Below the pieces are notes generated by a model, which made no database searches, had not been told where the DNA came from, and worked only from the letters and a program-made list of their open reading frames with translations. This document shows positions 16,240-52,715 of a DNA stretch of 64,000 nucleotides, one piece after another. The position numbers and the translations under genes are program-made. The DNA is from Frankia casuarinae (GTDB taxonomy: Bacteria; Actinomycetota; Actinomycetes; Frankiales; Frankiaceae), in contig NC_007777.1 of NCBI RefSeq assembly GCF_000013345.1, positions 1,860,001 to 1,924,000 on the forward strand, given 5' to 3'. Positions within the stretch are counted from its first letter, which is position 1. Each line of letters opens with the position of its first letter.

Positions 16240-16244
16240 GCTCG

Positions 16245-17285: not shown

Positions 17286-17387
17286 GCGTGCTCGGCCGCC
17301 GCTGCCGCGGCTCGACATACCTGCGGCGACGTACCCGCGGCGGGGCTGCCGGTTCATCCTTCCCGTTCCGACACCGAGGGTCGTTCC

Positions 17388-33532: not shown

Positions 33533-34480
33533 GTGACGAGCGCGTGGTCGGAAGCTCGGCAGGACGAAATTCCACCGTGGTCCACCGACTATCCAGGTCT
33601 GTCCAGGGGGGCGTCCTTGTCTGGTTCGGGTGATTCGCCATCGGTAAGTGTGGTGATTCCGGCGCTCAACGAGGCGCGGAATCTGCGGGAAGTATTCGGC
33701 CGACTTCCGGTGGACGCCGAAATAATCCTGGTGGACGGGAACTCCACCGATGACACCGTCCGACTGGCCCGCGAGCTACGCCCCGACGTGGTCGTCGTCC
33801 GCCAGACCCGATACGGCAAGGGCAACGCCATGGCCTGCGGCTTTGCCGTGGCATCGGGGGACATCGTGGTCACGCTCGACGCCGACGGCTCGGCCGACCC
33901 GGCCGAGATACCCTCCTTCGTCGCGGCCCTCGTCCAGGGCGCCGACTTCGTCAAGGGAACCCGATTCGCCCACCGTGGCGGCAGCAACGACATTACCCTG
34001 CTGCGTACTCTTGGAAATCTCTTCTTCTGTCATCTGGTCAACCTGCTCTTCCACCGCCGGTTCACCGACCTGTGCTACGGCTACAACGCATTCCGGCGAG
34101 ATTGTCTGCCGATGCTCGGGCTGATGCCGGGAGAAACCGACGGCATTCGGCGGCATGGCGACGGCTTCGAGATCGAAACCTTGATCACCCTCCGTGCGAC
34201 CAAGGCCTGCCTGCGGGTCACCGAGGTCGGCAGCTTTGAGCACAAGCGCCTTCACGGCGCGAGCAACCTGAATGCGGGCCGGGATGGTATGCGCGTCCTG
34301 CGGACCATCCTCGTCGAATGGTCGGAAAACCTTACCGCCCGGTCACGAAACCGCGCCAGGTGGGACGGCATGCTGCTCAGCAGTCCCGGTCAACCGGTAT
34401 CGACCATCGTCAGCCAGCGACGTCCGGGCGACCTTCCCCATGGCCGGCGCAGGACAACCGGCGCGACGGAATACGCGTGA
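33533..34480 (+). CDS. Glycosyltransferase family 2 (dolichyl-phosphate-mannose-synthase-like)
   Basis: A 315-residue GT2 with VSVVIPALNEARNLREVFGRL near residue 38, EIILVDGNSTDDTVRLAREL, RYGKGNAMACGFAVASGDIVVTLDADGSADPAEIP and GTRFAHRGGSNDITLLRTLGNLFFCHLVNLLF. This is the DPM1/GtrB-like pattern, lacking the C-terminal helices of full GtrB. Such enzymes make polyprenyl-phosphate sugars used outside the membrane. GTG 33533 is the first start; a TTG nearer the domain is possible. Its TGA overlaps the next ATG by one base. Confidence 0.86.
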   Translation: MTSAWSEARQDEIPPWSTDYPGLSRGASLSGSGDSPSVSVVIPALNEARNLREVFGRLPVDAEIILVDGNSTDDTVRLARELRPDVVVVRQTRYGKGNAMACGFAVASGDIVVTLDADGSADPAEIPSFVAALVQGADFVKGTRFAHRGGSNDITLLRTLGNLFFCHLVNLLFHRRFTDLCYGYNAFRRDCLPMLGLMPGETDGIRRHGDGFEIETLITLRATKACLRVTEVGSFEHKRLHGASNLNAGRDGMRVLRTILVEWSENLTARSRNRARWDGMLLSSPGQPVSTIVSQRRPGDLPHGRRRTTGATEYA

Positions 34481-36276
34481 TGACCCCCCCGGCCGGCCCG
34501 CGGCTCTCGGTGGTCATCTGTGCCTATACCGAACGGCGCCGGCACGATCTGCAGCGCGCGGTGACCAGCATCGCCGAACAGACCAGGAAGGCCGACCAGC
34601 TGATCCTCGTCATCGACCACAATGACCGGTTGCGCCGGTGGGCCGAGGCTGCGTACCCCGGTGCCACCGTGATCCCCAACACCGGCCGCCGTGGCCTGTC
34701 CGGTGCCCGCAACTGCGGCGTCGGGGCCGCCACCGGCGACGTGGTCGCCTTCCTGGACGACGACGCCCACGCCGAGCCGGACTGGCTGGCCCAGTTGGCC
34801 GCCCACTACACCGACCCCCGGGTCGCCGGGGTCGGCGGTGCCGCCATGCCGGTGTGGCCGCACCGCCGACCCCGCTGGTTCCCCCCCGAGTTCGACTGGG
34901 TGGTCGGATGCAGCTACGTCGGGCTGCCGACCGACACGGCTGCGGTCCGTAACCCGATCGGAGCGGGGATGTCGTTCCGGCGGGCCGTGTTCGATCGCGT
35001 CGGCGGGTTCACCGAGGGGCTTGGGCGGGTCGGCACCACACCGCTGGGCTGCGAGGAAACCGAGTTCGGTATCCGCCTTCAGGCGATCCTCCCGGACGCT
35101 GTCGTCCGCTACGAGCCACGGGCACGGGTCTGGCACCAGGTAACCGGCGACCGGGCCTCCCTGCGGTACTTCCTGGCACGCTGCCATGCCGAAGGCCTGT
35201 CCAAGGCCGCGGTAGCCGACCGGGCCGGGGCGGACGCGGCGCTCGCCACCGAACGGCAGTACCTGAGGCGGACGCTGCCCCGAGCACTGGCTCGTGACCG
35301 CCACAGCCTGGGCACCTGGCCGCGAGCCGGGGCCGTGCTGGTCGGCACCGGGTCCACGGCCATCGGCTACGCACGCGGCCGGCTACGCCTCGCCGCCGGC
35401 CGGCGTGACACGCCACGTCAGCCGATCCCGTCGGAGGTAGCTGTGATCCCGATTCTGCTGTACCACTCGGTGACCGATTATCCGGTGGCGAGCTATCGAC
35501 GTTGGACGGTCGATACCGCAACCTTTGTCCGCCATCTCACCCTCATTGCCGGTTCCGGCCGGGTACCGCTGACGGTGTCCGAGTATGTCGAACGGAGGCG
35601 GCACCAGACCCTGCCTCCGCGACCGGTCCTCATCACCTTCGACGACGGATTCGCCGACAACCTGGCCGCCGCTCGTGAGGTCGTCGCGCACGGGCTCACC
35701 GCGACCTGCTACGTCGTCACCGACTGGATCGGCCAGGTCGGCATGCTGCGCGGCGCCGACCTGCGGACCCTGGCCGGCCTCGGGGTCGAGATCGGTGGTC
35801 ACAGCCACACCCATCCCCGGCTCGACGAGCTTCGCCCCGACGAGGCGCGCCGGGAGATCAGCGACTGCAACGCCCGGTTGACCGCTGCGATCGGCGCACC
35901 GGTGGGCTCCTTCGCCTACCCCCACGGCAATTACGACCATGCCGTTCGGCGGCTCGTCGGGCAGGCCGGCTTCACGTCCGCCTGCGGGGTGCGCAACATG
36001 ATGTCGCACGGCGCCGACGACCCGTTCGCCCTTGCCCGACTGACCGTGACGGTCGACACCCCGGACCGGCAGATCAGGGCGTGGCTGGACGGGGCCGGCC
36101 GCGCGGCCCCCGCTCGGGAGTTGCTGCGTACGCGGGGCAGCCGGCTCTCCCGTCGAACGAGGGCTCGGCTCCTCGGCCCGCGTCTACCCTACCGACCAAT
36201 CGTCACCGATCTGCCCGTACCAGCCGATCTGCCCGTACCAGCCGTCCCGGCGGCGTTCGGGGAGGTGCGGCCGTGA
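34480..36276 (+). CDS. GT2 glycosyltransferase fused to a NodB-type polysaccharide deacetylase
   Basis: A 598-residue two-domain protein. Residues about 8-260 form a GT2 domain (LSVVICAYTERRRHDLQRAVTSI, GLSGARNCGVGAATGDVVAFLDDDAHAEPDWL, EETEFGIRLQ). Residues about 320-560 form a NodB/CE4 deacetylase with ILLYHSVTDYP, ITFDDGFADNLAAA (TFDDG metal motif), GGHSHTHPRL (H-x3-H) and FAYPHGNYD. It could add an N-acetylated sugar and deacetylate it. The C-terminal tail has a duplicated ADLPVP unit. It is the second gene of a coupled four-gene run. A similar fusion lies at 43403-45283. Confidence 0.9.
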   Translation: MTPPAGPRLSVVICAYTERRRHDLQRAVTSIAEQTRKADQLILVIDHNDRLRRWAEAAYPGATVIPNTGRRGLSGARNCGVGAATGDVVAFLDDDAHAEPDWLAQLAAHYTDPRVAGVGGAAMPVWPHRRPRWFPPEFDWVVGCSYVGLPTDTAAVRNPIGAGMSFRRAVFDRVGGFTEGLGRVGTTPLGCEETEFGIRLQAILPDAVVRYEPRARVWHQVTGDRASLRYFLARCHAEGLSKAAVADRAGADAALATERQYLRRTLPRALARDRHSLGTWPRAGAVLVGTGSTAIGYARGRLRLAAGRRDTPRQPIPSEVAVIPILLYHSVTDYPVASYRRWTVDTATFVRHLTLIAGSGRVPLTVSEYVERRRHQTLPPRPVLITFDDGFADNLAAAREVVAHGLTATCYVVTDWIGQVGMLRGADLRTLAGLGVEIGGHSHTHPRLDELRPDEARREISDCNARLTAAIGAPVGSFAYPHGNYDHAVRRLVGQAGFTSACGVRNMMSHGADDPFALARLTVTVDTPDRQIRAWLDGAGRAAPARELLRTRGSRLSRRTRARLLGPRLPYRPIVTDLPVPADLPVPAVPAAFGEVRP

Positions 36277-37673
36277 CCACCACGCCGCCGGCCATGATGC
36301 TGCCGGGCGACGGTCCGATCGCGCTGCACGAGGTAGAACTGTCCGCGCCGCTTCCGGTGCTCACCGGTGACGGGCCGGCACAGGTGCTGGTCCGGCTGCA
36401 CGGCCGTCCCCTGGGGGTGGTCGCTGCGACGCTGTCCCCGGCCGGCCTGCGCCCGGACCAGCTCGCCGGCCGGGTCATGGACAGACTCGGGCCGGACGTG
36501 GCCGCCCACCTGACCGCGGACGGGCTCGCGGTTCCCGAAACGGTCCCGATCGACGGAGTTGTGACGTCAGACGTCTGCCGGCCGGTGCTCCCCGCCGAGC
36601 TCGCCGGGACCGTCGTCGTGACAAGCTGCGTCGCCTCCCCCTCGCTGGCGGCCACGCTCGCGGGAATCCTGGCGCAGTCCGTGCCAGCGCAGGAAATCAT
36701 CGTGGTCGACAACCGGCCGCGCACGAGCGGCATCCGCGAACAGCTCAGTCGGATGGCCGGCGAGGTGCGCTACGTCGCCGAGCCAGAGAGGGGGCTTTCC
36801 CGGGCCCGCAACGCCGGACTGGCCGCCGCGACCACACCGGTGGTCGTCTTCACCGACGACGACGTCGAGGTCGACCCGCGCTGGTTGGAGTTCCTCCTGT
36901 CCGGGTTCGCCGCCGGCTCGGGTGTCGTCGACGAGACGGTGGGGTGCGTCACCGGGCTGATCCGGCCACTGGAGCTCTCAACCCCGGCGCAGGTGTGGTT
37001 CGAGCAGTTCGGCGGCTTCGGCAAGGGCTTCGTCGGACGCCGGTTCGACCGCACCGAAAATCGATCAGGCGACCTGCTCTATCCCTATACCGCGGGCGTG
37101 TTCGGCAGCGGCGCGAACAGCGCTTTCCGGACTGATACGCTGCGTCAGCTTGGTGGTTTCGACGAATTTCTCGGCACGGGCACCGCGGCCCGCGGTGGCG
37201 AGGATCTCGACATCTTCCTGTCCGTGGTGCGCAGTGGCCACGTCCTGGTCTACGAGCCGGCCGCGCTGATCCGCCACCTGCACAAGCGGACCACTGTCGA
37301 ACTGCGGCGCCAGATGTACGACTACGGGGCCGGCCTCGGGGCGATGGTCACCAAACGCATCGCGACTCAACCCGCCGAACGCCTCCAGATCGCCCGTCTC
37401 GTCCCCGGCGGCCTGCATCATCTTCTCCACCCACGCAGCAGCAAGAACGCCGGCAAATCCCGTGACTATCCCCGGTCCCTGACCTTGATCGAGTTGGTCG
37501 GTGTGGCCCGAGGGCCGGTCGGCTATGCCGCCAGCCGGGCCCTCGCCCGGCGCCGGCAGCGCGATCTTCCTCATGACCACGCACCGACTCCCGGTGCTCC
37601 CCCCGCCCCCTTTCCCAGGGCGCCCATCCCCGAACCGCGGATCTCCACCGTGACCACTGGAGCGCAACCATGA
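36273..37673 (+). CDS. GT2 glycosyltransferase with conserved N-terminal accessory domain
   Basis: A 466-residue protein. Residues about 15-115 form an accessory domain (VLVRLHGRPLGVVAATLSP, then DQLAGRVMDRLGPDVAAHLTADGL) shared with the gene at 42072-43406. From about 120 follows a GT2 domain with VVVTSCVASPSLAATLAGIL, IIVVDNRPRTSGI, GLSRARNAGLAAATTPVVVFTDDDVEVDPRW and GGEDLDIFLSVVRSG. GTG 36273 follows GGGGAGG and overlaps the previous stop by 4 bp. Function of the accessory domain is unknown to me. Confidence 0.87.
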   Translation: MTTTPPAMMLPGDGPIALHEVELSAPLPVLTGDGPAQVLVRLHGRPLGVVAATLSPAGLRPDQLAGRVMDRLGPDVAAHLTADGLAVPETVPIDGVVTSDVCRPVLPAELAGTVVVTSCVASPSLAATLAGILAQSVPAQEIIVVDNRPRTSGIREQLSRMAGEVRYVAEPERGLSRARNAGLAAATTPVVVFTDDDVEVDPRWLEFLLSGFAAGSGVVDETVGCVTGLIRPLELSTPAQVWFEQFGGFGKGFVGRRFDRTENRSGDLLYPYTAGVFGSGANSAFRTDTLRQLGGFDEFLGTGTAARGGEDLDIFLSVVRSGHVLVYEPAALIRHLHKRTTVELRRQMYDYGAGLGAMVTKRIATQPAERLQIARLVPGGLHHLLHPRSSKNAGKSRDYPRSLTLIELVGVARGPVGYAASRALARRRQRDLPHDHAPTPGAPPAPFPRAPIPEPRISTVTTGAQP

Positions 37674-38059
37674 GCAGCGTGTACGCCCGCCGAACAACGC
37701 AGGCGGCGCTCGTGGCGGTAACCGTGATGCTCGCCTTTCTTGTGGTCTGCCGAACAGATTCTCCGGTACGGGTCCTGCTCGCCGTCCCCGCCGCCTTCCT
37801 CCTTCCCGGGGCCGCCGTGCTGGCCAGGCTCCCGGTCGACGGGACGGCGGCATGGATCGGGCTTGCCGTCGCCATCAGCCTTGCCGTCGACGTCCTGACC
37901 AGCATGCTCATGGTCTGGTCGGGATGGTGGCACCCAGCCGTGATGCAGTCCGTCGTGGGACTTGCCTGCTGCGCGGTCCTCATCCACAGCCTGCGCGCGG
38001 AGCTGCGCGCCCAGCCGCGCGCCCGGCCGCGCGCTGACGGGAAGGTGCGAGGGCGTTGA
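37670..38059 (+). CDS. Small membrane protein of the EPS operon
   Basis: A 129-residue protein with four predicted hydrophobic segments (about 10-27, 30-50, 58-80, 86-106) and an Arg/Pro-rich cytoplasmic tail. Not recognised beyond topology. Its start overlaps the GT2 stop by 4 bp (ATGA), and its stop overlaps the next start by 4 bp (TTGA), so it is translated as part of this operon and may be a partner of the large membrane protein that follows. Confidence 0.75.
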   Translation: MSSVYARRTTQAALVAVTVMLAFLVVCRTDSPVRVLLAVPAAFLLPGAAVLARLPVDGTAAWIGLAVAISLAVDVLTSMLMVWSGWWHPAVMQSVVGLACCAVLIHSLRAELRAQPRARPRADGKVRGR

Positions 38060-39954
38060 CCGGCAGACCGCTGCTTCCGCCGGAGATACCGGATCCCCGG
38101 CTCGGCCAGAACGCGGCTTCCCAGCCCCACGCCGCGGCTGCCCGGGCCCGCCTGCGCTCGGTCCGTCAAAGACGGCCCGAGGACCCCGGAATCCGGCGGC
38201 CGGCGCGGTTGTCAGGCCCCTTCGCGACGGGCCTTCGCTGGCTGTTTCCGCTGGCGGTCGGCATCACCCTCTGGGGGCTGTCACTGCGGTGGATCCACGT
38301 CGAGAACCTCACCGACTACGGTCTCCCGCCGGCACTGCCCATCGCCTGGTACGTCGGCCTGGGCGTGCTCCTGCTCGGCGCTGTCGGCGCCGTCGGGCGG
38401 GCCCGCTTCCAGCCGTTCATCGCGGCGGCCTACCTGCTTGCCTGCATTCTCGTGCTCTACGGCACCCTTCCGCTCATCCTGGACGTTCCGCACTACCCCT
38501 GGGTGTACAAGCACATCGGCGTGGTCCGCTATATCGAGCAGCATGGCGGCGTCGACATCGACATCGATATCTACCACCGATGGCCCGGCTTCTTCGCCGG
38601 TACCGCGGTCTTCGGCTCGCTTGCCGGCCGACCCAACCCGATCGCCTTCGCCGCCTGGACCGAGGTCTTCTTCACCGGCATCGACGCCCTTCTCGTCTGG
38701 GCGGCCACCAGGACGCTGCTTCGCGAGCCACGGATCGCTGCGGGCGCGGCACTGGTCTTCGTCGTGACGAACTGGGTCGGGCAGGACTATTTCGCCCCCC
38801 AGGCCCTCAGCCGGACGCTGGCCCTCGCCCTGTACCTGGTGCTCCTGCGGCAACTCCGCACCGGCGCGCCGAGGGCCATCCTGCGGCGGACCGTGCGGTC
38901 CGCCGGAGTCCACAGCAGAAGGCCGCCGCTGCGCTTCGCCGCCCCGCCAGGCCCAACCTGGCCGCTGCCGGTGGCGGTCGGCGTCGTGCTGCTCCTGGAC
39001 GGGGCGGTGGTGGTCAGCCACCAGTTGACCCCGTACCTGCTCCTCCTCGGAGTCGGTGCGCTGACCGCGGCCGGGCTTGTGCGGCCGCGGTGGGTGGTGG
39101 TCGCCATGGCCGGTCTGACGATCGCCTATCTGATCCCGCACTTCGCCTATGTTCAGGATCATTTCGGGGTCTTCAGCAGTCCCGACCCGTTCGCGAACGC
39201 CCGGTCAGAGGAGCCGCCGCTTCCTTCGTCGGGGAAGCTGGCCAAAACCACCGGACTGATCCTGACCGGCACGGTCTGGGCCCTGGCCGGAGTCGGCGGG
39301 CTGCGCCGGCTGCACCGCGGTGACGGCCGGGTGCTCCCGCTCATCCTGCTGAGCATCGCACCGGGCGTCATCCTGTTCGGGCAGAGCTACGGCGGTGAAA
39401 GCATCCTGCGGGCGATTCTGTTCTCCCTGCCCTGGTGCGCGCCGTTGGTGTGCTGCGCCGTCGCGCCGATGACCGGGCGGTGGCGACGGCGGCACGTCCT
39501 GGCGGGCTGCGGCGGGATTCTCCTCCTCGCCACGCTCTTCATGCCCGCCTTCTTCGGGAAGACGGAACTGAATCTCATGAACGCCGACGAGGTCCAGGCC
39601 GGTGATTATCTGTACGCGCACGCCCGGCCCGGGTCGGTGGCCGTGCTGACCGGGGCCACCTTCCCGAGCCGCTACGGGGCTCGATATCCCGAGGTGGACG
39701 ATGTCCTGATCACCGACACCTTCGGCGAGCGCGCAATCAGGCCATCGACGGTGAATGCCGTGGCCGACTTCATCGGAACGTACCCGGGACGGGGTTACCT
39801 CGTTTTCTCGACGGCACAGGAGGTGTATGACCGTGTATACCGGACGGCGACCGCCGGTGCGCTGCGGGCGGTGGAGACGGCCGTCCGCTCCTCGCCGCGG
39901 TTCCGCCTCTGGTACGCGACCCGGAACACCCGTATCTACGAACTCGCCGGATAG
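38056..39954 (+). CDS. Large polytopic membrane protein, possible GT-C-type transferase
   Basis: A 632-residue protein with a basic N-terminus, about 11-12 membrane helices and a soluble C-terminal domain (about 500-632) that reads ADEVQAGDYLYAHARPGSVAVLTG, resembling the tail of actinobacterial GT-C or oligosaccharyltransferase-like proteins. Helix 1 is followed by an acidic segment (HVENLTDYGL), and another acidic run VDIDIDIY sits near 170, as in polyprenyl-phosphate-dependent transferases. It could transfer or polymerise sugar outside the membrane. It starts with TTG overlapping the previous stop. Family assignment tentative. Confidence 0.78.
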   Translation: MTGRPLLPPEIPDPRLGQNAASQPHAAAARARLRSVRQRRPEDPGIRRPARLSGPFATGLRWLFPLAVGITLWGLSLRWIHVENLTDYGLPPALPIAWYVGLGVLLLGAVGAVGRARFQPFIAAAYLLACILVLYGTLPLILDVPHYPWVYKHIGVVRYIEQHGGVDIDIDIYHRWPGFFAGTAVFGSLAGRPNPIAFAAWTEVFFTGIDALLVWAATRTLLREPRIAAGAALVFVVTNWVGQDYFAPQALSRTLALALYLVLLRQLRTGAPRAILRRTVRSAGVHSRRPPLRFAAPPGPTWPLPVAVGVVLLLDGAVVVSHQLTPYLLLLGVGALTAAGLVRPRWVVVAMAGLTIAYLIPHFAYVQDHFGVFSSPDPFANARSEEPPLPSSGKLAKTTGLILTGTVWALAGVGGLRRLHRGDGRVLPLILLSIAPGVILFGQSYGGESILRAILFSLPWCAPLVCCAVAPMTGRWRRRHVLAGCGGILLLATLFMPAFFGKTELNLMNADEVQAGDYLYAHARPGSVAVLTGATFPSRYGARYPEVDDVLITDTFGERAIRPSTVNAVADFIGTYPGRGYLVFSTAQEVYDRVYRTATAGALRAVETAVRSSPRFRLWYATRNTRIYELAG

Positions 39955-39969
39955 CACCTGGACCCTGCC

Positions 39970-40017
39970 GCGGCCCCGTTCGCCGCGGACTCTGCCGCTA
40001 TCGGCGAACGGGGCCGC
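39970..40017 (+). terminator. Strong 16-bp perfect hairpin after the EPS operon
   Basis: GCGGCCCCGTTCGCCG (39970-39985) pairs perfectly with CGGCGAACGGGGCCGC (40002-40017) across a 16-nt loop, starting 15 bp after a stop codon. There is no T-run, as is usual in actinomycetes. It supports placing the next gene's start downstream. Confidence 0.65.
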
Positions 40018-40060
40018 CGGCCAGAGCGGTGCCCAGAGCGGTGCGCTGTACCGCAACGGC

Positions 40061-41323
40061 ATGGCGTTGGCGATGAGCGGCGGCCTCTCGTCGTTGGTGG
40101 GCAGCCTCTACTGGGTGCTGGCCGCCCGGCAGGCCGACCGGCCGTCGGTCGGCGAGGCCACCGCCCTCATTTCGGCCCTCACCGGTCTGTCCTACCTGTG
40201 CCAGCTGGGCCTGGGGGGCGCATTGACCGCCTTCCTGCCGCAGGCGGGGGGCCAGGCGCGCCGCCTGGTCGTCGGCGCCTACGCCGGCGCGGCCGGCCTC
40301 AGCCTGCTGGTCGGTTTGAGTTTTGCCTTGCTGGCCGCCCGGATGAGCCCGGCTCTCGCAGTTCTCCAGTCACCCCGGATCGCCCTCTTCTTCGCCATCT
40401 CGGTGGCGATCTGGTCGCTGTTCGCACTGCAGGACAACGTCTTCACTGGCCTGCGGAAGGCGGTCGTCGTACCGATCGAGAACACCGCTTACAGCGTCGT
40501 CAAGCTCATTCTGCTCGTCACCTTCGGTGGCGGGGTGAGCGGACTGGCATTGTTCACCTCCTGGGTGATGCCCGCGGCGGTAGCCGTCATACCGGCGTCG
40601 GTCATGCTGCTGGTGTGGCTGCGACCCGCCGGACGTGCGCCAAGCCCACCCGGGCTGGCCGCGGACTTCCGAAAATACCTGGCCGGCGACTCGCTGGCGG
40701 AGCTGGTGTCCCAGCTCAGCACGACGCTCCTGCCGATGATTGTCATCGCCCGGATCGGGGCGACGGAAGGGGCCGCGTTCGGAATCAGTTGGTTGATCAT
40801 ATGCACGGTCGACGAAATCCCCTGGAGCCTCGGGACCTCGCTCACGGTCGAAGGCGCGCAGCCCGGCGCCGACTCTCGCCGCCTCCAACGGGCGATGCTG
40901 CGCCGCATTCTCCCGATTGTTATCGGAATCGTCCTCGCCCTCATCGTCGCCGCGCCGCTTGTACTGGCTCTCTTCGGCCCCTCCTACCGGGCCGACGCGA
41001 CCACTGTGCTTCGACTGCTGCTGTTGGGCTCGGTCGCCCGCACAGTCGTCATCCTGGAGCTGTGCACGGCCCGCGCGCAGCGGAGGGCCGGGTGGCTCGT
41101 GTGTATCGAGGCGCTGCTGGCGGTGCTGGTGCTGCCCAGTCTCTGGCTGCTGGGTGGGAGCCTGGGACTGGCGGGGGTCGGCCTGGCCTGGTTCGGATCA
41201 CAGACCGCGACCGCGTGTGTGGTGCTCGCCGCGGGTCGAACCGGCGATGACCAGGTCGACTCGCCACCCTACCGCGGCTTCTCCGCCCGCCCACAGGTCA
41301 GCACCGGAAAGCGCGCGTCCTGA
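40061..41323 (+). CDS. Second Wzx-like/MATE-like flippase
   Basis: A 420-residue polytopic membrane protein, about 12 helices, of the polysaccharide-flippase type (LSSLVGSLYWVLAARQADRPSVGEATALISALTGLSYLCQLGLGGALTAFLPQ at the start; LVSQLSTTLLPMIVIARIGATEGAAFGISWLI in the middle). ATG 40061 was chosen because the open frame further upstream, with a good AGGAGG before ATG 39827, would overlap the previous gene by 128 bp and run through a strong hairpin. That longer form (498 residues) remains possible. It converges with, and overlaps by 55 bp, a methyltransferase gene. Confidence 0.83.
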   Translation: MALAMSGGLSSLVGSLYWVLAARQADRPSVGEATALISALTGLSYLCQLGLGGALTAFLPQAGGQARRLVVGAYAGAAGLSLLVGLSFALLAARMSPALAVLQSPRIALFFAISVAIWSLFALQDNVFTGLRKAVVVPIENTAYSVVKLILLVTFGGGVSGLALFTSWVMPAAVAVIPASVMLLVWLRPAGRAPSPPGLAADFRKYLAGDSLAELVSQLSTTLLPMIVIARIGATEGAAFGISWLIICTVDEIPWSLGTSLTVEGAQPGADSRRLQRAMLRRILPIVIGIVLALIVAAPLVLALFGPSYRADATTVLRLLLLGSVARTVVILELCTARAQRRAGWLVCIEALLAVLVLPSLWLLGGSLGLAGVGLAWFGSQTATACVVLAAGRTGDDQVDSPPYRGFSARPQVSTGKRAS

Positions 41324-42075
41324 ACATCGAGATCCTTGCGACTGACGTCGCCGACTGCCAGACCCAACAACGCCGAGACACCGGCCAGGACGTTTCCGAA
41401 ACCCTCCACCGTGGCCTCGATCCCGACTCGGGCGAGTTCGGCGCGAAGACCCGGCGGCGTCCAGCGCCACTTGTCGTCGGCCCCGTCGTCCACGTCAATA
41501 CGTCCCAGTGCCGGAACCGAGATCAACAGGACGCCGTTCGGTCGAAGCGACCGCCACAGATTCTCCAGACAGCAGCCCGGAGAGGTGTACTGAAGGACCT
41601 GAGTGAGAATCACACAGTCGAACTCGGCGGCGGGCAGACTGTCCGCGACATCGAGGTCGACATGAAGATCGGCATGATGGTTCGTCTTATCCCGGTCGAT
41701 GATCGTAATCCGACCCGGAGTTCCGAACCGCGAGCTGTATTCCGCGTTTTTGACCTCCAGTACATGCCCCCGGATATCGTTGGCATGCCGACTGATCCAC
41801 TGTTCGATATAGTGCCGGTCGACCGGCAGCCCGCGGTCCCATCCGTAACGGTCGCTGAACGGCCTGACCCGTTTCATGTTCCCCCACGACACCCGGCGCC
41901 CAGGCGCGTTCCGCAGCGTCCAGTACGCCATCTGCCGCACCACTTGCGGCGATCGCCGGTAGTAGCCGAGAGCCCACTCCGGCGGGAATCTCTCCCGCTC
42001 GACCGCCGGGTTCCCCGCCCTGGGCCTGTCACGTTGCATCACGTCACGCGTCACAGCCTTTCCGGTCGTCGTCAC
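41269..42075 (-). CDS. SAM-dependent methyltransferase (class I)
   Basis: A 268-residue protein whose C-terminal half looks like a Methyltransf_11 domain: GHVLEVKNAEYSSRFG in place of the usual VLEIGCG, then FDCVILTQVLQYTSPGCCLENLWRSLRPNGVLLISVPALG. The glycine-rich SAM loop is therefore atypical. The N-terminal half (RRSPQVVRQMAYWTLRN) is common in methyltransferases next to GT2 genes. It is the last gene of a minus-strand operon, overlapping its upstream GT2 gene by 4 bp. A sugar or polymer methylation role is inferred. Confidence 0.82.
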   Translation of the reverse strand: MTTTGKAVTRDVMQRDRPRAGNPAVERERFPPEWALGYYRRSPQVVRQMAYWTLRNAPGRRVSWGNMKRVRPFSDRYGWDRGLPVDRHYIEQWISRHANDIRGHVLEVKNAEYSSRFGTPGRITIIDRDKTNHHADLHVDLDVADSLPAAEFDCVILTQVLQYTSPGCCLENLWRSLRPNGVLLISVPALGRIDVDDGADDKWRWTPPGLRAELARVGIEATVEGFGNVLAGVSALLGLAVGDVSRKDLDVQDARFPVLTCGRAEKPR

Positions 42076-43406
42076 CGCCAGGCGGCCGTTTGCCGCTCCC
42101 GGGCGTAGAGCAACGGTCCGGCGGCGTAGCCGGCGAACTCCCGCAGCAGGGCACCCTTCGGGGCCTGGACCCGCCCGTCGAGCCGCTGGCTCGTCGCATG
42201 GCCGATGCGGGCCATCCCACGCAGGCCTCGTGGGATGCGACGTACCACCTCACCCCGGGTCGACCGCTGGAGAAGCAGCTTGGCCAGGAAGGCCGTGAAA
42301 CCGGAGCCGTAGCCGAACATCTGAGCGAGCAGCGCCGCGTCGTCGGCGCGGTGGTGATGCCAGACGAAGGCGGCTGGTTCGTACGCGATCGCTCGGCCCG
42401 CCCGCAACATGCGCACGAAGAGATCGAGGTCCTCGCCGCCCCGGCTCCTGGTGCCCGCTCCCAACGCCTCGTCGAAGCCACCCAGGTCCCGCAGGAACGC
42501 GACGTCGAACCCGACATTCGCGCCGGTGCCGACGAAACCTATATAGGGGTACAGCGGACCGTGCCGCTCGTTGTCGGCGAGGTCGAAAAGCACCGGCTCG
42601 CAGCGGGTGGACCAGTACGACGCCCGGGCGTCGAAGTAGACTTCGGCCGCGCTCACGATGCTCGCCGTGCAGACGAGTCCCGTGACGCACGCAACGTCCG
42701 GCCGGCGCCGGAAACCCCGAACCAGCCCGTCGATCCAGCCGGGGTCAACCGAGACGTCGTCGTCGGTATAGGCGACGTACACCCCCCGCGCCAGCGCGAG
42801 CCCGCGGTTGCGGGCGCGGGAGAGACCCGGGCGTGGTTCGGGGACATAGCGGAATCGTTCGTCGGTGGCCGAAAACGAGTCGACGACCCGCTTCGTGGCG
42901 TCGCTCGACGGGGCATTGTCCACGATGAGGAACTCGACGGCCGGATAGGTGACCTCCGTGAGTCGACGCAGGCAGTTGGCCAGGATCTCACTGCGGTCTC
43001 TGGTGGCGACGACGACGGAGACGAGATCCGTGGAATCGAGATCGGTGGATTGAACCTTGTTCGGGCAGGCCTCGGTGGCCGCGGCAGGCCTGGTGCGGGC
43101 GTCGAGGCGCTCGAGCGGGCGGAGACCCTCGCCGACCAGGTGATCGTTGATGCGCCCGCCGAACTCCGACCAGACCCTGCCGAGCAGCTCATCGACGTCG
43201 ATGCCGGTGGCCGTCCTGGCGGCCGCCGCGTAGCCGAGCGGCTCACCGTGCAGCAGGGCGAGGACCCGCGCACGTCGCTGACGGTCGCGTGGCGGCACGA
43301 CCGAGCGCACGACGCCCCCGGCCGACACCTCGAGCTCACAGCACCAGATACCCTCGTCGGCCGCGGCTGGGCCGGCCGGGGACTCCCGATTCCCGTGCAG
43401 GTTCAT
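42072..43406 (-). CDS. GT2 glycosyltransferase with conserved N-terminal accessory domain, copy 2
   Basis: A 444-residue protein with the same layout as the gene at 36273. An N-terminal domain (about 15-105; RARVLALLHGEPLGYAAAARTATGIDVDELLGRVWSEFGGRINDHL) is followed by a GT2 domain with VSVVVATRDRSEILANCLRRL, FLIVDNAPSSDATKR, GLSRARNRGLALARGVYVAYTDDDVSVDPGW and GGEDLDLFVRMLRAG. It shares 4-bp overlaps on both sides (GT2-deacetylase upstream, methyltransferase downstream), so the three genes form one coupled operon on the minus strand. Confidence 0.88.
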   Translation of the reverse strand: MNLHGNRESPAGPAAADEGIWCCELEVSAGGVVRSVVPPRDRQRRARVLALLHGEPLGYAAAARTATGIDVDELLGRVWSEFGGRINDHLVGEGLRPLERLDARTRPAAATEACPNKVQSTDLDSTDLVSVVVATRDRSEILANCLRRLTEVTYPAVEFLIVDNAPSSDATKRVVDSFSATDERFRYVPEPRPGLSRARNRGLALARGVYVAYTDDDVSVDPGWIDGLVRGFRRRPDVACVTGLVCTASIVSAAEVYFDARASYWSTRCEPVLFDLADNERHGPLYPYIGFVGTGANVGFDVAFLRDLGGFDEALGAGTRSRGGEDLDLFVRMLRAGRAIAYEPAAFVWHHHRADDAALLAQMFGYGSGFTAFLAKLLLQRSTRGEVVRRIPRGLRGMARIGHATSQRLDGRVQAPKGALLREFAGYAAGPLLYARERQTAAWR

Positions 43407-45283
43407 CCGACGCTCCTCGCCTCGTGATCTTCGGCCTCGTGATCTTTGGTGTGTCCGCGGATCGTCCGTTGGACCGGGAGAACTCGACGCAATGCCCCAC
43501 CCAGTTCCCGCTCGATGTCGGGACGGATGTCGGGACGTCGGTAAACCTGCGATCTGCGCACCGTCTCGACGAGCGCATCAACGCGGGTATGGCGCTCCAC
43601 CTCGATCCTGGGCAGGGCATAGCGGTCCTGAGCCGTGGGGAAGGCGCGCCGAGTTTGCAGCGCGAACGCCGCGTCGTATCCCGCCTTCTTCACCATCATG
43701 CGCACGCGCGCGTCATGTTCCCCGTAGGGATAGGCGAACAGGCGTGGCACGGGCAGCCCGATGGCCGCGAGGTCGCCGCGCGCCGCGGAAAGATCGTCCC
43801 ACAGGCCGGCCCCACTCATCCTCGTCAACTGCCCGTGAGTGCGGGAGTGCGCCGCCACTTCCCAGCCTTCCTGGTGAAGGGCACGCAGCCGGCTCGCGTC
43901 GAGGAGCGGCAGCCTGGCGGCGCCGTTCACCGCATCCCACCTGTTCCAACCGCCGATCTCTTTCGTGACCACGAAAACCGTCGCGGGAATACCAAGTTCC
44001 CGAAGGACGGGCACGGCGTGTTCGAACAGACTCGAATAGGCGTCGTCGAAGGTGAGGACCAGCGACTGATGCCGGGCGGGCCGGCCGTCGAGATGATGCA
44101 GGAGTTCATCGACCCCGACGAAGGTGAAGCCGGCGCCCAGCAGGGCTGTCAGCTGGGCCCGGAACTGTGGCGGGGGAACCGCATACCTACTCAGCAGGGG
44201 ATCCGACACGTCCTCTATCGCATGATAGGCAAGGATCCGCAGGCCAACGTCCGGTGCGTGCAGGAGACCGCCGCGCTGGTGGGTTCCCCGCCAGTAGGAG
44301 CAGTCGCGTAGTCCCAGGAACATCCATCTGGTGGGCCGGTCCACCTTCCCGGCGCTGACTCTTCCGAGCACGAGACCCGCCGGGACGCGGGACGCCCAGG
44401 GCGGTGCCGCCGCCGCGGCCCTGGTGAGGCTTCCTCTGATCGTCTTCCCGCCATGCTGGGCAAAGAGCAGGTCACCGAGACCCGGATGTTTTCGGGAAAG
44501 CGCGGCATCGGCCTGCCCGGCCTGCGTCCACTGCCTCAGGTGCGCCTCGGGCGAAACGACGTAACGCTGGTAGGAGACGGCGTCGGCGGCGAATCGAACC
44601 CGCGCACCGCTCTGCAGCAGCCGGTAGAGGAAGTCGGTGTCCTCACCGCCGAAGCTGCCGCCGGCGGTAAAACCCGTGTCGAAACCGCCGAGCCTGGCGA
44701 AGGTCGACGCCCGCATCGACACCTGCCCGGAGAGCAGGTCCGCGACGGTCAGCCGCCCGTCCGACCGCAGCAGCCTCCGGCGGCGTGCCCGGGCCCACCG
44801 GTCGACTCCGTAGGTGAGCACCGTAGGAGGCGAGGCGGGGTGCATCGGGATGTGGCCGACCACGGCGTCGGCGCCGGCGGCGAGAAGCCGCTCATGCTCG
44901 ACGAGGAGCCGCCGGTCCGCCGCCATGTCGTCGTCGAGAAAGAGGATGAACTCGCCGAGCGCGCCCGCGGCGCCACGGTTTCTCGCTGCGGCCGCGCCCG
45001 CGTTCTCCTGCCACAGGATTCGCTTGGAGAACGGCAGAGAGACAGCCTGGAGAGCCTTCTCAGTGCCATCCGTGGAACCGTCGACGACGACGATCAATTC
45101 GCAGGGCCACGGCATATCGAGATACCTGAGTTCCGCAATACTCTGCAATACCACGTCTCGGCGGTTGTATGTCGGCATCACAATGCTGAACCGGACCGAA
45201 CGCCCATTACGGGCGGGCTGCCCCGCCGAATGGTCCGGGATGTCCACGCTCGGTTTCTCACGGTAGCTCATCGCGAATTCCAC
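43403..45283 (-). CDS. GT2 glycosyltransferase fused to a NodB-type polysaccharide deacetylase, copy 2
   Basis: A 626-residue fusion. A GT2 domain lies at about 32-290 (FSIVMPTYNRRDVVLQSIAEL, VVVDGSTDGTEKALQ, GAAAARNRGAAGALGEFILFLDDDMAADRRL, FGGEDTDFLYRLLQSG). A CE4 deacetylase lies at about 350-585 (ILAYHAIEDVSDPLLSRY, LTFDDAYSSLFEHA, AAHSRTHGQLTRM, FAYPYGEHD). The metal motif reads TFDDA rather than TFDDG but keeps the DD pair. It begins at GTG 45283 or ATG 45271 and heads the three-gene minus-strand operon. Confidence 0.89.
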   Translation of the reverse strand: MEFAMSYREKPSVDIPDHSAGQPARNGRSVRFSIVMPTYNRRDVVLQSIAELRYLDMPWPCELIVVVDGSTDGTEKALQAVSLPFSKRILWQENAGAAAARNRGAAGALGEFILFLDDDMAADRRLLVEHERLLAAGADAVVGHIPMHPASPPTVLTYGVDRWARARRRRLLRSDGRLTVADLLSGQVSMRASTFARLGGFDTGFTAGGSFGGEDTDFLYRLLQSGARVRFAADAVSYQRYVVSPEAHLRQWTQAGQADAALSRKHPGLGDLLFAQHGGKTIRGSLTRAAAAAPPWASRVPAGLVLGRVSAGKVDRPTRWMFLGLRDCSYWRGTHQRGGLLHAPDVGLRILAYHAIEDVSDPLLSRYAVPPPQFRAQLTALLGAGFTFVGVDELLHHLDGRPARHQSLVLTFDDAYSSLFEHAVPVLRELGIPATVFVVTKEIGGWNRWDAVNGAARLPLLDASRLRALHQEGWEVAAHSRTHGQLTRMSGAGLWDDLSAARGDLAAIGLPVPRLFAYPYGEHDARVRMMVKKAGYDAAFALQTRRAFPTAQDRYALPRIEVERHTRVDALVETVRRSQVYRRPDIRPDIERELGGALRRVLPVQRTIRGHTKDHEAEDHEARSVG

Positions 45284-50018: not shown

Positions 50019-50037
50019 TTAACTCATGCTTACCTTA
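50019..50037 (-). promoter_or_regulatory. Candidate DtxR/IdeR iron box before the ferric-uptake operon
   Basis: TTAACTCATGCTTACCTTA on the plus strand (TAAGGTAAGCATGAGTTAA on the coding strand) matches 12 of 19 positions of the DtxR-family consensus TTAGGTTAGGCTAACCTAA. It sits 88 bp upstream of the binding-protein start and overlaps the last codons of the next gene. Confidence 0.55.
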
Positions 50038-52699
50038 GCGCCGTAGAATGTGACGAGTGGCACAAGTCGGGAGCGCTGGCGGGCGAACCGCGGAGCGGAC
50101 GCCTGGCGCCGAGTGGGATCGGCACGCCCGCCGTGAGCCGGCTGAGAAGGCCCATGGCATGGAACGAGACCTTCCACGCGGCGACGCCGACGGTGAGCGA
50201 GGCCAGCAGCGCCAGGACCGGATGGTCGTCCTGCAGAAGGGGGAACACCTGCCAGTGGGTCAGGTAGATGTAGAGCGAGCTGCCGGCCAGCGGGCCCGCC
50301 AGCCGGCGCAGCGGGCGTGGGCAGCGGACGCTCGTGGTCCAGGCCAGCAGGAGCACGCCGCCGAGCACCACGTGCTCCCGGCGTGCGTCAGCGAAGAACC
50401 CGGGGATGGTGAGCGCCGCCGCCGCGGTGAGGGCCAGCCGCTGCCGTACCGTGGTCGCGGCGGCGGTGGCCCATCCCAGCGCGAACAGCCAGAGCACCGC
50501 CACCGACGTCTGGGTGTGGCGTGGTCCCGGCGGTAGGGCCACGACGTCGAAGCGGGTGAGCAGACCGGCGGCGAGGACACCGGCGGCGACGGCCCACGGG
50601 CGGCGCCGCTGCCAGCGGTCGAACGCCGGCACGCCGAGCAGGGCCGCGAGGACCAGCAGGATCTGGACCAGGGCTTCGACGAACCAGAACTCCCAGGGTG
50701 GGCCCGCGCGGTCCGGCCCGAACACGCTGTTGAGCAGCACGATGTTGGCGGGTTCGTGTTCGTCCATGACGAGCACGAGTACGGTGATGAAGACGATGCT
50801 CGGCATCGCGAGGTACGCGATGCTGCGGAGCAGCCCGCGGACCCGGTCGCGCCGCGGCGCCGCGGTCAGGTGGAAACGGGCGAAGTTGTAGCCGGCGACG
50901 GCGATGAGGAGATGGGCGCCCCCGAGGATGCCGCCGACGGCGTCGAAGGTGTTGGCGTGCGTCCCGACGATCAGCACGATCGCAACCGCCCGGAGCAGCA
51001 CGCTGGTCTCGATCGAGCTGCCAGAGCCGCCAGCCCGGCGCTTCGGTCGCGTGGCCGGCTTCAGGTCCCGCACGGCCATGGTGTGCCAGCCGGCGGGCAG
51101 GTGTCCGAGGGCGTCCTCCAGCCGCAGTGACAGTTCCACGTAGGACAGCGAGTCGCCGCCCAGGCTCACGAAGGTGCTGTCGTCGGTGACATCGTCGCGG
51201 TGGAGCAGCTCGGCGAACAGCCGGCGTACGTCGGCTGTTCCGTCCGACGGTCCGTCCCGTCCGGTGGGCGCGGTCGTGCGCGCCGGTCGCGCGTCGCGGG
51301 CGATCTCCTGCAGCGCGACCAGATCCGGTTTGCCGGTGGCCAGGCGGGGCAGGGCGGCCAGGCGGTGGACGCGGACGGCGTTCTCCGGCAGCCGGCAGGC
51401 CCGCGCGACCAGCCGGCGGACCGAAGGCGTGTCCCGGTCACCCTCGATCATCACGTCAACGGCGTCGTCGCCGGTCACGCAGCAGGCGCTGAGCCCCTGG
51501 CCGGCGAGGGTGTCTTCCACGTGTTGCAGGTCGATCCGGATCCCGAAGACCTTGGCGGATCTGGTCTGCCGTCCCACGATCTCGTACAGGCCGTCATCGG
51601 TGCGGCGCGCGACGTCCCCGGTGCGCAGCTCGTCGAGCGTCGGACCGAGCGCGAGGTCCGAGGCCGTCCGCGCGTAACCCATCATGACGTTGGGCCCGGA
51701 ATAGACGAGCTGCCCCAGATCCCCGGTGCTGTCGGTGCTCCCGGTGCGGTCGGCCAGCGGCTCGAGCCGGAACGACCCGCCCGGGACCGGGACTCCGATG
51801 GTGTGGGGGTGGGTCGGCGCGAGGTGCGGCGGCAGGCAGGACATCCGCGCCGTGGCCTCGGTCTGGCCGTACATCACGACGAAGTCCCAGCCGTTGCGTC
51901 GTCCGAGCTCGGCGTAGCGGGCCACCCGGTCCGGCGCCAGTCGACCGCCGGCCTGCGTGATGTAGCGCAGATGCGGCAGCGACATCGCGTCGAAACCGAT
52001 CCTGTCGAGCAGGTCGAACGTGTAGGGGACGCCAGCCAGCGAGGTTCCCTGCCCGTCCCGGAAGAGGTTCCAGAAGCAGGCGTCCACGACGGACAGGGAC
52101 GTCAGGATCAGACCGGCCCCGCACAGGAGGTGACTGTGCACGACCGACAGCCCGTAGCAGTAGTACAGGGGCAGGGTCGTCGCGGCGCGGTCGCCGGGGC
52201 GAAGGCCGAGGCACTCGACGATCGACTCGGCATTGGCCTGCAGGTTCGTGTACGACAGCCGGACCAGTTTCGGTGAGCCCGTCGAGCCCGACGTGCTCAG
52301 CAGCAGCGCGAGGTCCGGATGAAGGTCGTGCTTCGAGCCCTCCCGCCGCTGCTCGACGCGGGTCCGCGTGCCGGCCGGGCGGATCACCACGTCGGGGTCA
52401 TAGGACGTGATCAGGGCGTCGGTCGACGCGGCGTTGTCACCCGGCACCAGCAGGACCGCGTGCCCGGCGGACAGCGCCGCCAGGTACAGGACGAGGACGT
52501 CGATCGTGTTGACCGCCGCGAGGAGCACCAGCCGCCGCCCGGCGCCGAGCCGACCGGCGGCGGCGTCGACGCGTGCCGCCAGTTCGCGGTAGGACAGCCG
52601 GCCCTCAGCCGTGACAACGGCCGTGCGGTCACCGTGCCGTTCAAGGTGGCGGGCGAGGAACACAGTCGAGCTTGCGAGGGACGGGCCTGCCTTGGTCAC
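50030..52699 (-). CDS. Adenylation - carrier - membrane acyltransferase fusion protein
   Basis: An 889-residue three-part protein. Residues about 10-465 form an AMP-binding adenylation domain (LLLSTSGSTGSPKLVRLSY P-loop, VMYGQTEATARMSCLP, LRTGDVARRTDDGLYEIVGR, LATGKPDL). Residues about 480-555 form a phosphopantetheine carrier with GGDSLS and attachment Ser517. Residues about 570-870 form an acyltransferase-3-like domain with about 10 helices (LRAVAIVLIVGTHANTFDAVGG at the start). It would activate an acyl or amino acid, load it on its own carrier and transfer it at the membrane. The start is GTG 52699, 17 nt after an iron box, so production under iron starvation is likely. No ribosome site was found. 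Confidence 0.88.
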   Translation of the reverse strand: MTKAGPSLASSTVFLARHLERHGDRTAVVTAEGRLSYRELAARVDAAAGRLGAGRRLVLLAAVNTIDVLVLYLAALSAGHAVLLVPGDNAASTDALITSYDPDVVIRPAGTRTRVEQRREGSKHDLHPDLALLLSTSGSTGSPKLVRLSYTNLQANAESIVECLGLRPGDRAATTLPLYYCYGLSVVHSHLLCGAGLILTSLSVVDACFWNLFRDGQGTSLAGVPYTFDLLDRIGFDAMSLPHLRYITQAGGRLAPDRVARYAELGRRNGWDFVVMYGQTEATARMSCLPPHLAPTHPHTIGVPVPGGSFRLEPLADRTGSTDSTGDLGQLVYSGPNVMMGYARTASDLALGPTLDELRTGDVARRTDDGLYEIVGRQTRSAKVFGIRIDLQHVEDTLAGQGLSACCVTGDDAVDVMIEGDRDTPSVRRLVARACRLPENAVRVHRLAALPRLATGKPDLVALQEIARDARPARTTAPTGRDGPSDGTADVRRLFAELLHRDDVTDDSTFVSLGGDSLSYVELSLRLEDALGHLPAGWHTMAVRDLKPATRPKRRAGGSGSSIETSVLLRAVAIVLIVGTHANTFDAVGGILGGAHLLIAVAGYNFARFHLTAAPRRDRVRGLLRSIAYLAMPSIVFITVLVLVMDEHEPANIVLLNSVFGPDRAGPPWEFWFVEALVQILLVLAALLGVPAFDRWQRRRPWAVAAGVLAAGLLTRFDVVALPPGPRHTQTSVAVLWLFALGWATAAATTVRQRLALTAAAALTIPGFFADARREHVVLGGVLLLAWTTSVRCPRPLRRLAGPLAGSSLYIYLTHWQVFPLLQDDHPVLALLASLTVGVAAWKVSFHAMGLLSRLTAGVPIPLGARRPLRGSPASAPDLCHSSHSTALR

Positions 52700-52715
52700 C
52701 CAGCCAATGTACAAG

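What the first reader, a model, noticed from the sequence alone, without database searches (positions are those of the whole stretch)
34480..45283. Two GT2-deacetylase fusions in one polysaccharide locus
The genes at 34480-36276 and 43403-45283 each join a GT2 domain to a NodB/CE4 deacetylase. They lie in separate operons about 9 kb apart, with the same neighbour type (a GT2 with accessory domain) next to each. The pairing suggests a duplicated module that adds an N-acetylhexosamine and deacetylates it, perhaps placing positive charges in the polymer. The second has TFDDA instead of TFDDG.
Basis: partly seen in the sequence, partly recalled or inferred. Interest (0 to 1): 0.55.

Follow-up and report, generated by a model that had tools for sequence, protein, structure and literature searches.

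The report
Two unrelated sugar-adding, sugar-deacetylating fusion genes
A Frankia-family bacterium carries, in one sugar-polymer locus, two genes that each join a sugar-adding enzyme to a deacetylase; they look like two separate inventions rather than a copied module, and one is a fused form of a gene pair found side by side in many other bacteria.

Summary
Both genes encode a GT2 domain followed by a CE4 deacetylase domain, both CE4 sites look intact, and each gene overlaps a GT2 gene with an N-terminal accessory domain.

The duplication reading does not hold. A tree of 69 CE4 domains puts the two apart (AU p=3e-5); the GT2 halves score best against different families, and the neighbours are old paralogues (37%).

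34480-36276 is a fused form of a conserved gene pair: CE4 lies directly downstream of the same GT2 in 30 of 80 named loci, in 25 overlapping it by 4 or 8 nt, fused in none. The window keeps a GGAGG-GTG start where free CE4 proteins begin, so a separate CE4 may also be made. 43403-45283 is a rarer fusion (two family members, plus a truncated Solirubrobacterales copy).

Most likely both act at the cytoplasmic face on lipid-linked sugars, like Caulobacter HfsG/HfsH but in one chain, unlike MatB, whose deacetylase is outside.

The first fusion sits in a cassette (AglJ-like GT2, AglG-like GT2, optional CE4, accessory GT2, flippase candidate, membrane protein without a Pfam family) whose membrane protein is predicted to have the GT-C fold of oligosaccharyltransferases. 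My few literature searches listed no description of it.

The parts
33533..34480 (+). P0007, DPM-like GT2 (AglJ-like), 315 aa; first gene of the cassette
   Evidence: PF00535; best NCBIfam AglJ TIGR04182 110.3 bits, cut-off 325; homologue in 72 of 80 named loci
34480..36276 (+). P0001, fusion A: AglG-like GT2 (about 1-300), short linker, CE4 deacetylase (about 322-560)
35433..35445 (+). Possible internal start for a free CE4: GGAGG, 5 nt, GTG (codon 322)
   Evidence: 2 of 830 in-frame ATG/GTG inside window genes have GGAGG at 4-9 nt, this one included; but also only 2 of 47 called gene starts have GGAGG. The place matches starts of free CE4 proteins
36273..37673 (+). P0003, GT2 with N-terminal accessory region, 466 aa
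37670..38059 (+). Small membrane protein (four hydrophobic segments), weak DUF1616 match
   Evidence: (E 0.0042, below cut-off)
38056..39954 (+). P0005 (TMp), membrane protein without a Pfam match; predicted GT-C fold
40061..41323 (+). P0006, membrane protein, flippase candidate; no Pfam hit
   Evidence: a weakly similar gene (27%) in a Deinococcus operon is annotated oligosaccharide flippase
41269..42075 (-). P0008, methyltransferase-like
   Evidence: PF08241 24.4 bits, cut-off 21.2
42072..43406 (-). P0004, GT2 with N-terminal accessory region, 444 aa
43403..45283 (-). P0002, fusion B: EpsD-like GT2 (about 29-240), helical connector (245-336), CE4 deacetylase (about 345-580)

Best explanation
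Each protein is a bifunctional enzyme working at the cytoplasmic face. The GT2 domain adds a sugar to a growing lipid-linked oligosaccharide and the CE4 domain removes its N-acetyl (or another N-acyl) group before the next GT2, the accessory-region protein encoded directly downstream, extends the chain; the finished unit is then flipped and transferred or polymerised. Fusion A is a joined form of a widely conserved neighbouring gene pair and may still make a free CE4 from an internal start. Fusion B is an independent joining of other relatives. Shown by sequence: the domains, intact motifs, lack of a predicted membrane span, conserved adjacency, separate CE4 origins. Inferred: donor sugar, lipid carrier, order of steps, cytoplasmic site, and a free amine in the product.
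For: Domains and active sites. No 19-residue segment over hydropathy 1.6 in either fusion (maximum 1.17 and 1.25; 0.76 and 0.88 in the stretches before the CE4 domain). In 29 of the 30 free CE4 proteins next to the A-type GT2 the first CE4 strand begins 7-15 residues from the called start, which leaves no room for a signal peptide; the 30th lacks that strand as called. CE4 lies directly downstream of the A-type GT2 on the same strand in 30 of 80 named loci, 25 of them overlapping by 4 or 8 nt. Unfused states in the family: adjacent genes with a stop between, and genes with a 4-nt overlap. In other family members the same GT2 is instead fused to an accessory GT2, which fits consecutive steps. 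CE4 tree and AU tests reject P0001 and P0002 as one clade (p 3.1e-5), and P0001 with the three B rows (p 4.6e-4).
Against: No donor, acceptor or product was tested. In 50 of 80 loci no adjacent CE4 was counted, 47 of them without any CE4 in the stretch, so deacetylation is optional and the GT2 need not use an N-acetyl sugar; its best-scoring named model, AglG, is a glucuronosyltransferase. Free relatives of the fusion A CE4 in seven rows, one from this genome, lack both metal His residues. The hydropathy test is blunt: it also missed the signal-like N-terminus of another CE4 of this genome (L006, 1.25), and the C-terminal part of the A-type GT2 reaches 1.63 in one of the 20 members of A1, so a membrane contact there is possible. 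Fusion A as one polypeptide was seen in this genome only, so a sequencing or local mutation effect is not excluded. Only 2 of 47 called gene starts have GGAGG, so the internal start is suggestive, not typical.
Confidence: 0.55

Rival explanations
1. The CE4 domains deacetylate a different residue of the same glycan or precursor than the one added by the attached GT2; the fusion only keeps enzymes of one pathway together.
For: The A-type GT2 is often without a CE4 (47 of 80 stretches have none) and scores best against AglG, a glucuronosyltransferase. In some loci CE4 follows a GT2::accessory-GT2 fusion, so it need not act straight after the first GT2.
Against: GT2-CE4 adjacency with overlapping genes in 25 of 80 loci, and two separate fusions of GT2 to CE4.
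Confidence: 0.27
2. Fusion A is not used as one protein: a stop loss or frame change joined two cistrons, and the working CE4 starts at the internal GTG at 35443. (Compatible with the best explanation for the chemistry.)
For: Internal GGAGG-5 nt-GTG at the homologous start; separate genes in relatives.
Against: The linker reads best in the fused frame by codon score (-2.9 against -8.0 and -10.0); only 2 of 47 called gene starts carry GGAGG, so this is not the usual start signal here.
Confidence: 0.3
3. A duplicated module: both GT2-CE4 plus accessory-GT2 pairs arose by copying within the locus.
For: Same gene order in both operons; neighbours 37% identical, part of the accessory region included.
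Against: CE4 tree and AU tests; the GT2 halves have different best families and different nearest relatives; no accessory-GT2 neighbour was recognised beside fusion B in two relatives.
Confidence: 0.04
4. MatB-like arrangement: GT2 inside, CE4 outside, acting on the exported polymer.
For: MatB joins a GT2 and a CE4 domain (PMC5972031, passages). The CE4 of P0002 is nearest in fold to PplD, IcaB and PgaB, extracytoplasmic enzymes as I recall. The C-terminal part of the A-type GT2 is mildly hydrophobic in relatives (up to 1.63).
Against: 0.76 and 0.88 maximum hydropathy before the CE4 domains of the two fusions; free CE4 partners start at the CE4 strand without room for a signal peptide (29 of 30).
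Confidence: 0.05

Closest known systems
HfsG and HfsH of Caulobacter (holdfast)
   Same: A glycosyltransferase and a deacetylase in one lipid-linked polysaccharide pathway; HfsH is predicted to act on lipid-linked or polymerised substrate (PMC6372794, passages). That HfsG is a GT2 and HfsH a CE4 enzyme is recalled.
   Different: Separate proteins there. The fusions score far below the curated cut-offs of HfsH (37.8 and 31.2 bits, cut-off 400) and HfsG (P0002 30.2 bits, cut-off 500; no HfsG match listed for P0001).
MatB of Streptomyces (PNAG)
   Same: GT2 and CE4 in one protein in an actinobacterium (PMC5972031, passages).
   Different: MatB has a predicted membrane helix between the domains and an extracellular CE4. 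No membrane span is predicted here. I did not compare the sequences.
AglJ and AglG of haloarchaeal N-glycosylation
   Same: Best NCBIfam models for P0007 (AglJ) and for the GT2 half of P0001 (AglG); 20 of 20 members of alignment A1 match the AglG model. AglJ, AglG, AglI and AglE add the first four sugars to dolichol phosphate (PMC3871713, passages).
   Different: Scores are well below the equivalog cut-offs (110.3 of 325; 197.4 of 440). No deacetylase is named in the passages seen.
NodB and NodC
   Same: Chitin deacetylase and chitin synthase as partners (PMC4447401, passages).
   Different: NodB scores 25.3 and 21.6 bits, cut-off 240; no NodC match is listed for either fusion.
STT3, PglB, AglB and other GT-C enzymes (for the neighbour P0005)
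   Same: Predicted fold: Z 23.7, rmsd 5.0, 441 aligned to yeast oligosaccharyltransferase chain 8agc_A; 22.4 to the Archaeoglobus enzyme 3waj; 19.2 to ArnT; 18.8 to PglB.
   Different: About 10% identity; no useful sequence match in Pfam or PDB; the WWD motif of STT3 proteins (recalled) is not in P0005 as read by eye.

Membership tests
CE4 / NodB-homology deacetylase (PF01522) | Domain match above the curated cut-off | tested here: met
   73.5 and 89.5 bits, cut-off 23.1
CE4 / NodB-homology deacetylase (PF01522) | Catalytic Asp, metal Asp and the two His of H-x3-H (roles recalled) | tested here: met
   TFDDG/HSHTH and TFDDA/HSRTH; 58 of 69 CE4 domains compared keep all four; P0001 aligned with 4hd5
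CE4 / NodB-homology deacetylase (PF01522) | CE4 fold | tested here: met
   P0002 model only: Z 29.5, rmsd 2.4, 223 aligned to 6dq3. P0001 was not modelled
CE4 / NodB-homology deacetylase (PF01522) | Deacetylase activity | not testable with these tools
   needs biochemistry
GT2 (PF00535) | Domain match above the cut-off | tested here: met
   95.7 and 75.5 bits, cut-off 23.3
HfsH (NF050820) | Curated equivalog score | tested here: not met
   37.8 and 31.2 bits, cut-off 400
MatB-type GT2/CE4 protein | Membrane helix between the domains | tested here: not met
   hydropathy maxima 0.76 (P0001, residues 245-325) and 0.88 (P0002, 240-350), threshold 1.6; a blunt test, no dedicated predictor was at hand
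AglG (NF041394) | Equivalog score | tested here: not met
   197.4 bits, cut-off 440
AglJ (TIGR04182) | Equivalog score | tested here: not met
   P0007 110.3 bits, cut-off 325
NodB (TIGR04243) | Equivalog score | tested here: not met
   25.3 and 21.6 bits, cut-off 240
Oligosaccharyltransferase STT3/PglB/AglB (for P0005) | GT-C fold | tested here: met
   model pLDDT 88.0, Z up to 23.7; ArnT, Pmt and Aft enzymes share it, so it does not single out oligosaccharyltransferases
Oligosaccharyltransferase STT3/PglB/AglB (for P0005) | WWD motif (recalled) | tested here: not met
   not seen by eye in the P0005 sequence

The most novel reading that the evidence does not exclude
The fusion belongs to an undescribed, widely spread bacterial pathway that builds a short glycan on polyprenyl monophosphate (AglJ-like and AglG-like GT2s, accessory GT2, flippase) and transfers it with a GT-C enzyme of a new family shaped like oligosaccharyltransferases: a bacterial counterpart of the archaeal Agl pathway, in which an optional cytoplasmic CE4, here fused to the second transferase, turns one residue into a free amino sugar before transfer.
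Probability: 0.3. Interest if true: 0.75.

Novelty: new variant of a known kind. Interest (0 to 1): 0.46.

Why it matters
Free amino sugars change charge, adhesion and enzyme resistance of surface glycans. GT2 and CE4 joined twice, and the conserved GT2-CE4 gene pair in Actinomycetota, Chloroflexota and one Rhodobacteraceae MAG, argue that deacetylation is coupled to synthesis inside the cell, which can be tested with two proteins. The surrounding cassette, with a membrane protein that no Pfam model matches but whose predicted fold is GT-C, may be a glycan pathway not yet assigned.

Tried and rejected
Duplication of a module: rejected by the CE4 tree, AU tests, GT2 families and neighbours.

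Frameshift origin of fusion A: one alternative frame of the linker ends in TAG just before the GTG, but codon scores favour the fused frame, so I do not claim a frameshift. A full-span match in a family member (2 TGA inside) proved to be two genes.

'Fusion A only here' rests on 0 of 80 named loci and on gene calls in the relatives' loci. The 393-genome search lists only strong matches and could split a fused gene into two rows, so it is weak support. My gene caller is a simple codon-score program trained on the window; starts are approximate.

My first hydropathy run read some CE4 loci in a wrong frame (L075, L001, L004), and its threshold missed a signal-like N-terminus (L006); I therefore rest the 'no signal peptide' point on the short lead before the CE4 strand.

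Sequence searches of P0005 homologues in Pfam (eight members) and PDB gave nothing useful. Literature: (Frankia, exopolysaccharide, glycosyltransferase, polysaccharide deacetylase) found 0 papers; one search listed four papers, none about such a protein by title or start of abstract; one search listed two, one of them the MatB paper; two searches listed two and one papers, none about this cassette by title or start of abstract. The library holds open-licence PubMed Central only, and other terms might find more. One search looked for the location of HfsH in PMC8449245 and found no passage with the terms used.

Alignment A5 held one wrong row (a GT2 from L164) and was replaced by A6. Rows of A4 (36; one search listed the candidates) and A6 (26) were chosen by hand for spread.
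Full report
What is there. The two open frames are complete. P0001 (34480-36276, +, 598 aa) and P0002 (43403-45283, -, 626 aa) each pass Pfam's cut-offs for Glycos_transf_2 and Polysacc_deac_1. The operons converge: plus-strand genes from 33533 to 41323, minus-strand genes from 45283 down to 41269. Downstream of each fusion, overlapping its stop, is a GT2 with an extra N-terminal region; the two are 37% identical over 407 aa. The window also holds Wzz, Wzy_C, Polysacc_synt and Bac_transf genes and several other glycosyltransferases. The genome is one contig of 5,433,628 bases. Its closest named relatives are mostly Frankia and Protofrankia (top rows), and the length fits Frankia sp. CcI3 at 5.43 Mb (PMC4447401, passages); the exact strain is my inference.

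Active sites. In an alignment of 69 CE4 domains both proteins keep the Asp-Asp and His-x3-His residues and the AYPxG motif; 58 of 69 keep all four Asp and His, 11 do not. Among the 11 are seven free relatives of the P0001 CE4, one at 4637 kb of this genome, with SGHTG, SGHSG or AGHSG in place of HSHTH, and the own-genome CE4 at 922 kb (TFENG). The P0002 model (mean pLDDT 86.9, pTM 0.73) matches CE4 structures at Z 26.9 to 29.5 in the nine best rows and GT-A enzymes at 24.7 and below. The output does not say whether the two domains pack in a fixed way. P0001 was not modelled; it aligns with 4hd5, 4v33 and 6dq3 through the motifs. Hydropathy gives no membrane span in either fusion (maxima 1.17 and 1.25), but the test is blunt: it missed the signal-like N-terminus of another CE4 (L006), and the C-terminal part of the A-type GT2 ranges from 0.66 to 1.63 in 20 members, P0001 being 0.76. 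Better evidence for a cytoplasmic CE4 is that in 29 of 30 free partners the first CE4 strand begins 7-15 residues from the called start.

Not a duplicated module. The maximum-likelihood tree of the CE4 domains places P0001 with Frankiaceae CE4s, then an Acidimicrobiaceae and seven Streptomycetaceae operon-linked CE4s (91/79 and 92/85 support), and P0002 with its two fused relatives elsewhere. Holding P0001 and P0002 together lowers the log-likelihood by 164 (AU p 3.1e-5); holding P0001 with the three B rows lowers it by 36 (p 4.6e-4). The first pair was given by the finding, the second group was named after seeing the tree; long branches are present, so the p-values are a guide. The GT2 half of P0001 scores best against AglG, that of P0002 against EpsD. 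P0004 is 66% identical to a Modestobacter protein and P0003 55% to one of a family member, more than to each other.

Fusion A is a joined gene pair. Among 80 named loci found through the P0001 GT2 family, 33 have a CE4 in the stretch. In 30 it starts directly after the GT2 gene on the same strand: 25 overlap by 4 or 8 nt and five have gaps of 6 to 337 nt. None is fused. L106 and L164 have a CE4 elsewhere, and in L140 the GT2 gene was not called. Owners include Streptomyces, Nonomuraea, Micromonospora, Paeniglutamicibacter, an Anaerolineae MAG and a Rhodobacteraceae MAG. Two family members show the unfused state: genes with a TGA between and with a 4-nt overlap. In other family members the same GT2 is fused to the accessory GT2 instead. 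In the window GGAGG (35433-35437) lies 5 nt before a GTG at codon 322, where free CE4 proteins start. Of 830 in-frame ATG/GTG inside window genes 2 have GGAGG at 4-9 nt, this one included; of 47 called gene starts also only 2 do. No such signal lies in the junction of P0002 or its two relatives.

Fusion B. Matches of P0002 through both domains without a stop occur in 3 of 393 genomes of the class sample, the own one included, at 56-57% identity. A fourth, cut by a contig end, is in a Solirubrobacterales MAG (43% over 250 aa in the GT2 part, TFDDA kept), about 9 kb from an A-type GT2 on the opposite strand. The partner genes differ between these loci.

The cassette. A homologue of P0007 is found in 72 of 80 loci, of P0005 in 48, of P0006 in 43, of P0003 and of P0004 in 39 each (phmmer or hmmsearch at 1e-20). 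Of 48 stretches over 20 kb, 16 hold all four kinds at that strict limit. P0005 has a match in 20 of 58 relatives; in 15 of the 20 one lies on the same contig within about 8 kb of an A-type GT2 match (my comparison; in G004, G009, G010, G012 and G032 it does not, all of them many-contig drafts). A Deinococcus plasmid carries the cassette as six consecutive genes without CE4; a Pseudonocardia plasmid carries P0007-, A-GT2-, CE4- and P0005-like genes interrupted by insertion elements, without a listed flippase. A Rhizobium match looked broken and without clear neighbours. The P0005 model (pLDDT 88.0, pTM 0.88) has the GT-C fold: Z 23.7 to the yeast oligosaccharyltransferase chain, 22.4 to the Archaeoglobus enzyme, 19.2 to ArnT, 18.8 to PglB, 16.6 to AftA. 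TM-scores are modest, 0.35 to 0.46 for the best 24 Foldseek rows. Fold does not give the reaction.

How it most likely works. The CE4 is inside the cell with its GT2 and removes an acyl group from a lipid-linked intermediate before the next GT2 acts. HfsG/HfsH is the nearest working analogue (PMC6372794, passages); MatB differs by its membrane helix and outside CE4 (PMC5972031, passages). The AglJ/AglG resemblance suggests a polyprenyl monophosphate carrier (PMC3871713, passages), but the named-family scores for the fusions and P0007 are below their cut-offs, so membership is not claimed. The optional presence of CE4 and the glucuronosyltransferase identity of AglG are the main arguments against the sugar added by the fused GT2 being the one deacetylated.

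Verdict. Observation confirmed; interpretation partly supported. Two separately formed GT2-CE4 fusions in one locus, one from a conserved gene pair, beside a widespread cassette that deserves study for its own sake.

Noticed in passing
window 38056-39954: Membrane protein (P0005) without a Pfam match, often beside the AglG-like GT2 in other bacteria, predicted GT-C fold nearest to oligosaccharyltransferases.
   Followed up: partly
G000 4637220-4638050 (L008), and L037, L038, L076-L078, L080: Free relatives of the fusion A CE4 in the family have lost both metal-binding His (SGHTG or similar), three also the second Asp of the motif: a likely inactive CE4 clade.
   Followed up: partly
G000 922527-923207 (L007): Another own-genome CE4 with TFENG in place of TFDDG, although its twelve nearest same-genus rows in the tree keep TFDD.
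   Followed up: no
L043-L046, L059, L068, L169: A further CE4 gene near or next to a GT2 gene 34-42% identical to that of fusion A, not fused, in several genomes.
   Followed up: no
window 50030-52714 (-): Protein joining AMP-binding, phosphopantetheine-carrier and acyltransferase-3 domains next to an ABC transporter; could acylate an amine or hydroxyl, no link to the fusions shown.
   Followed up: no
window 15466-18578: Nucleotidyltransferase, epimerase and C-methyltransferase-like genes; relatives lie near the AglG-like GT2 in Mycobacterium, Amycolatopsis and Flexivirga loci.
   Followed up: no
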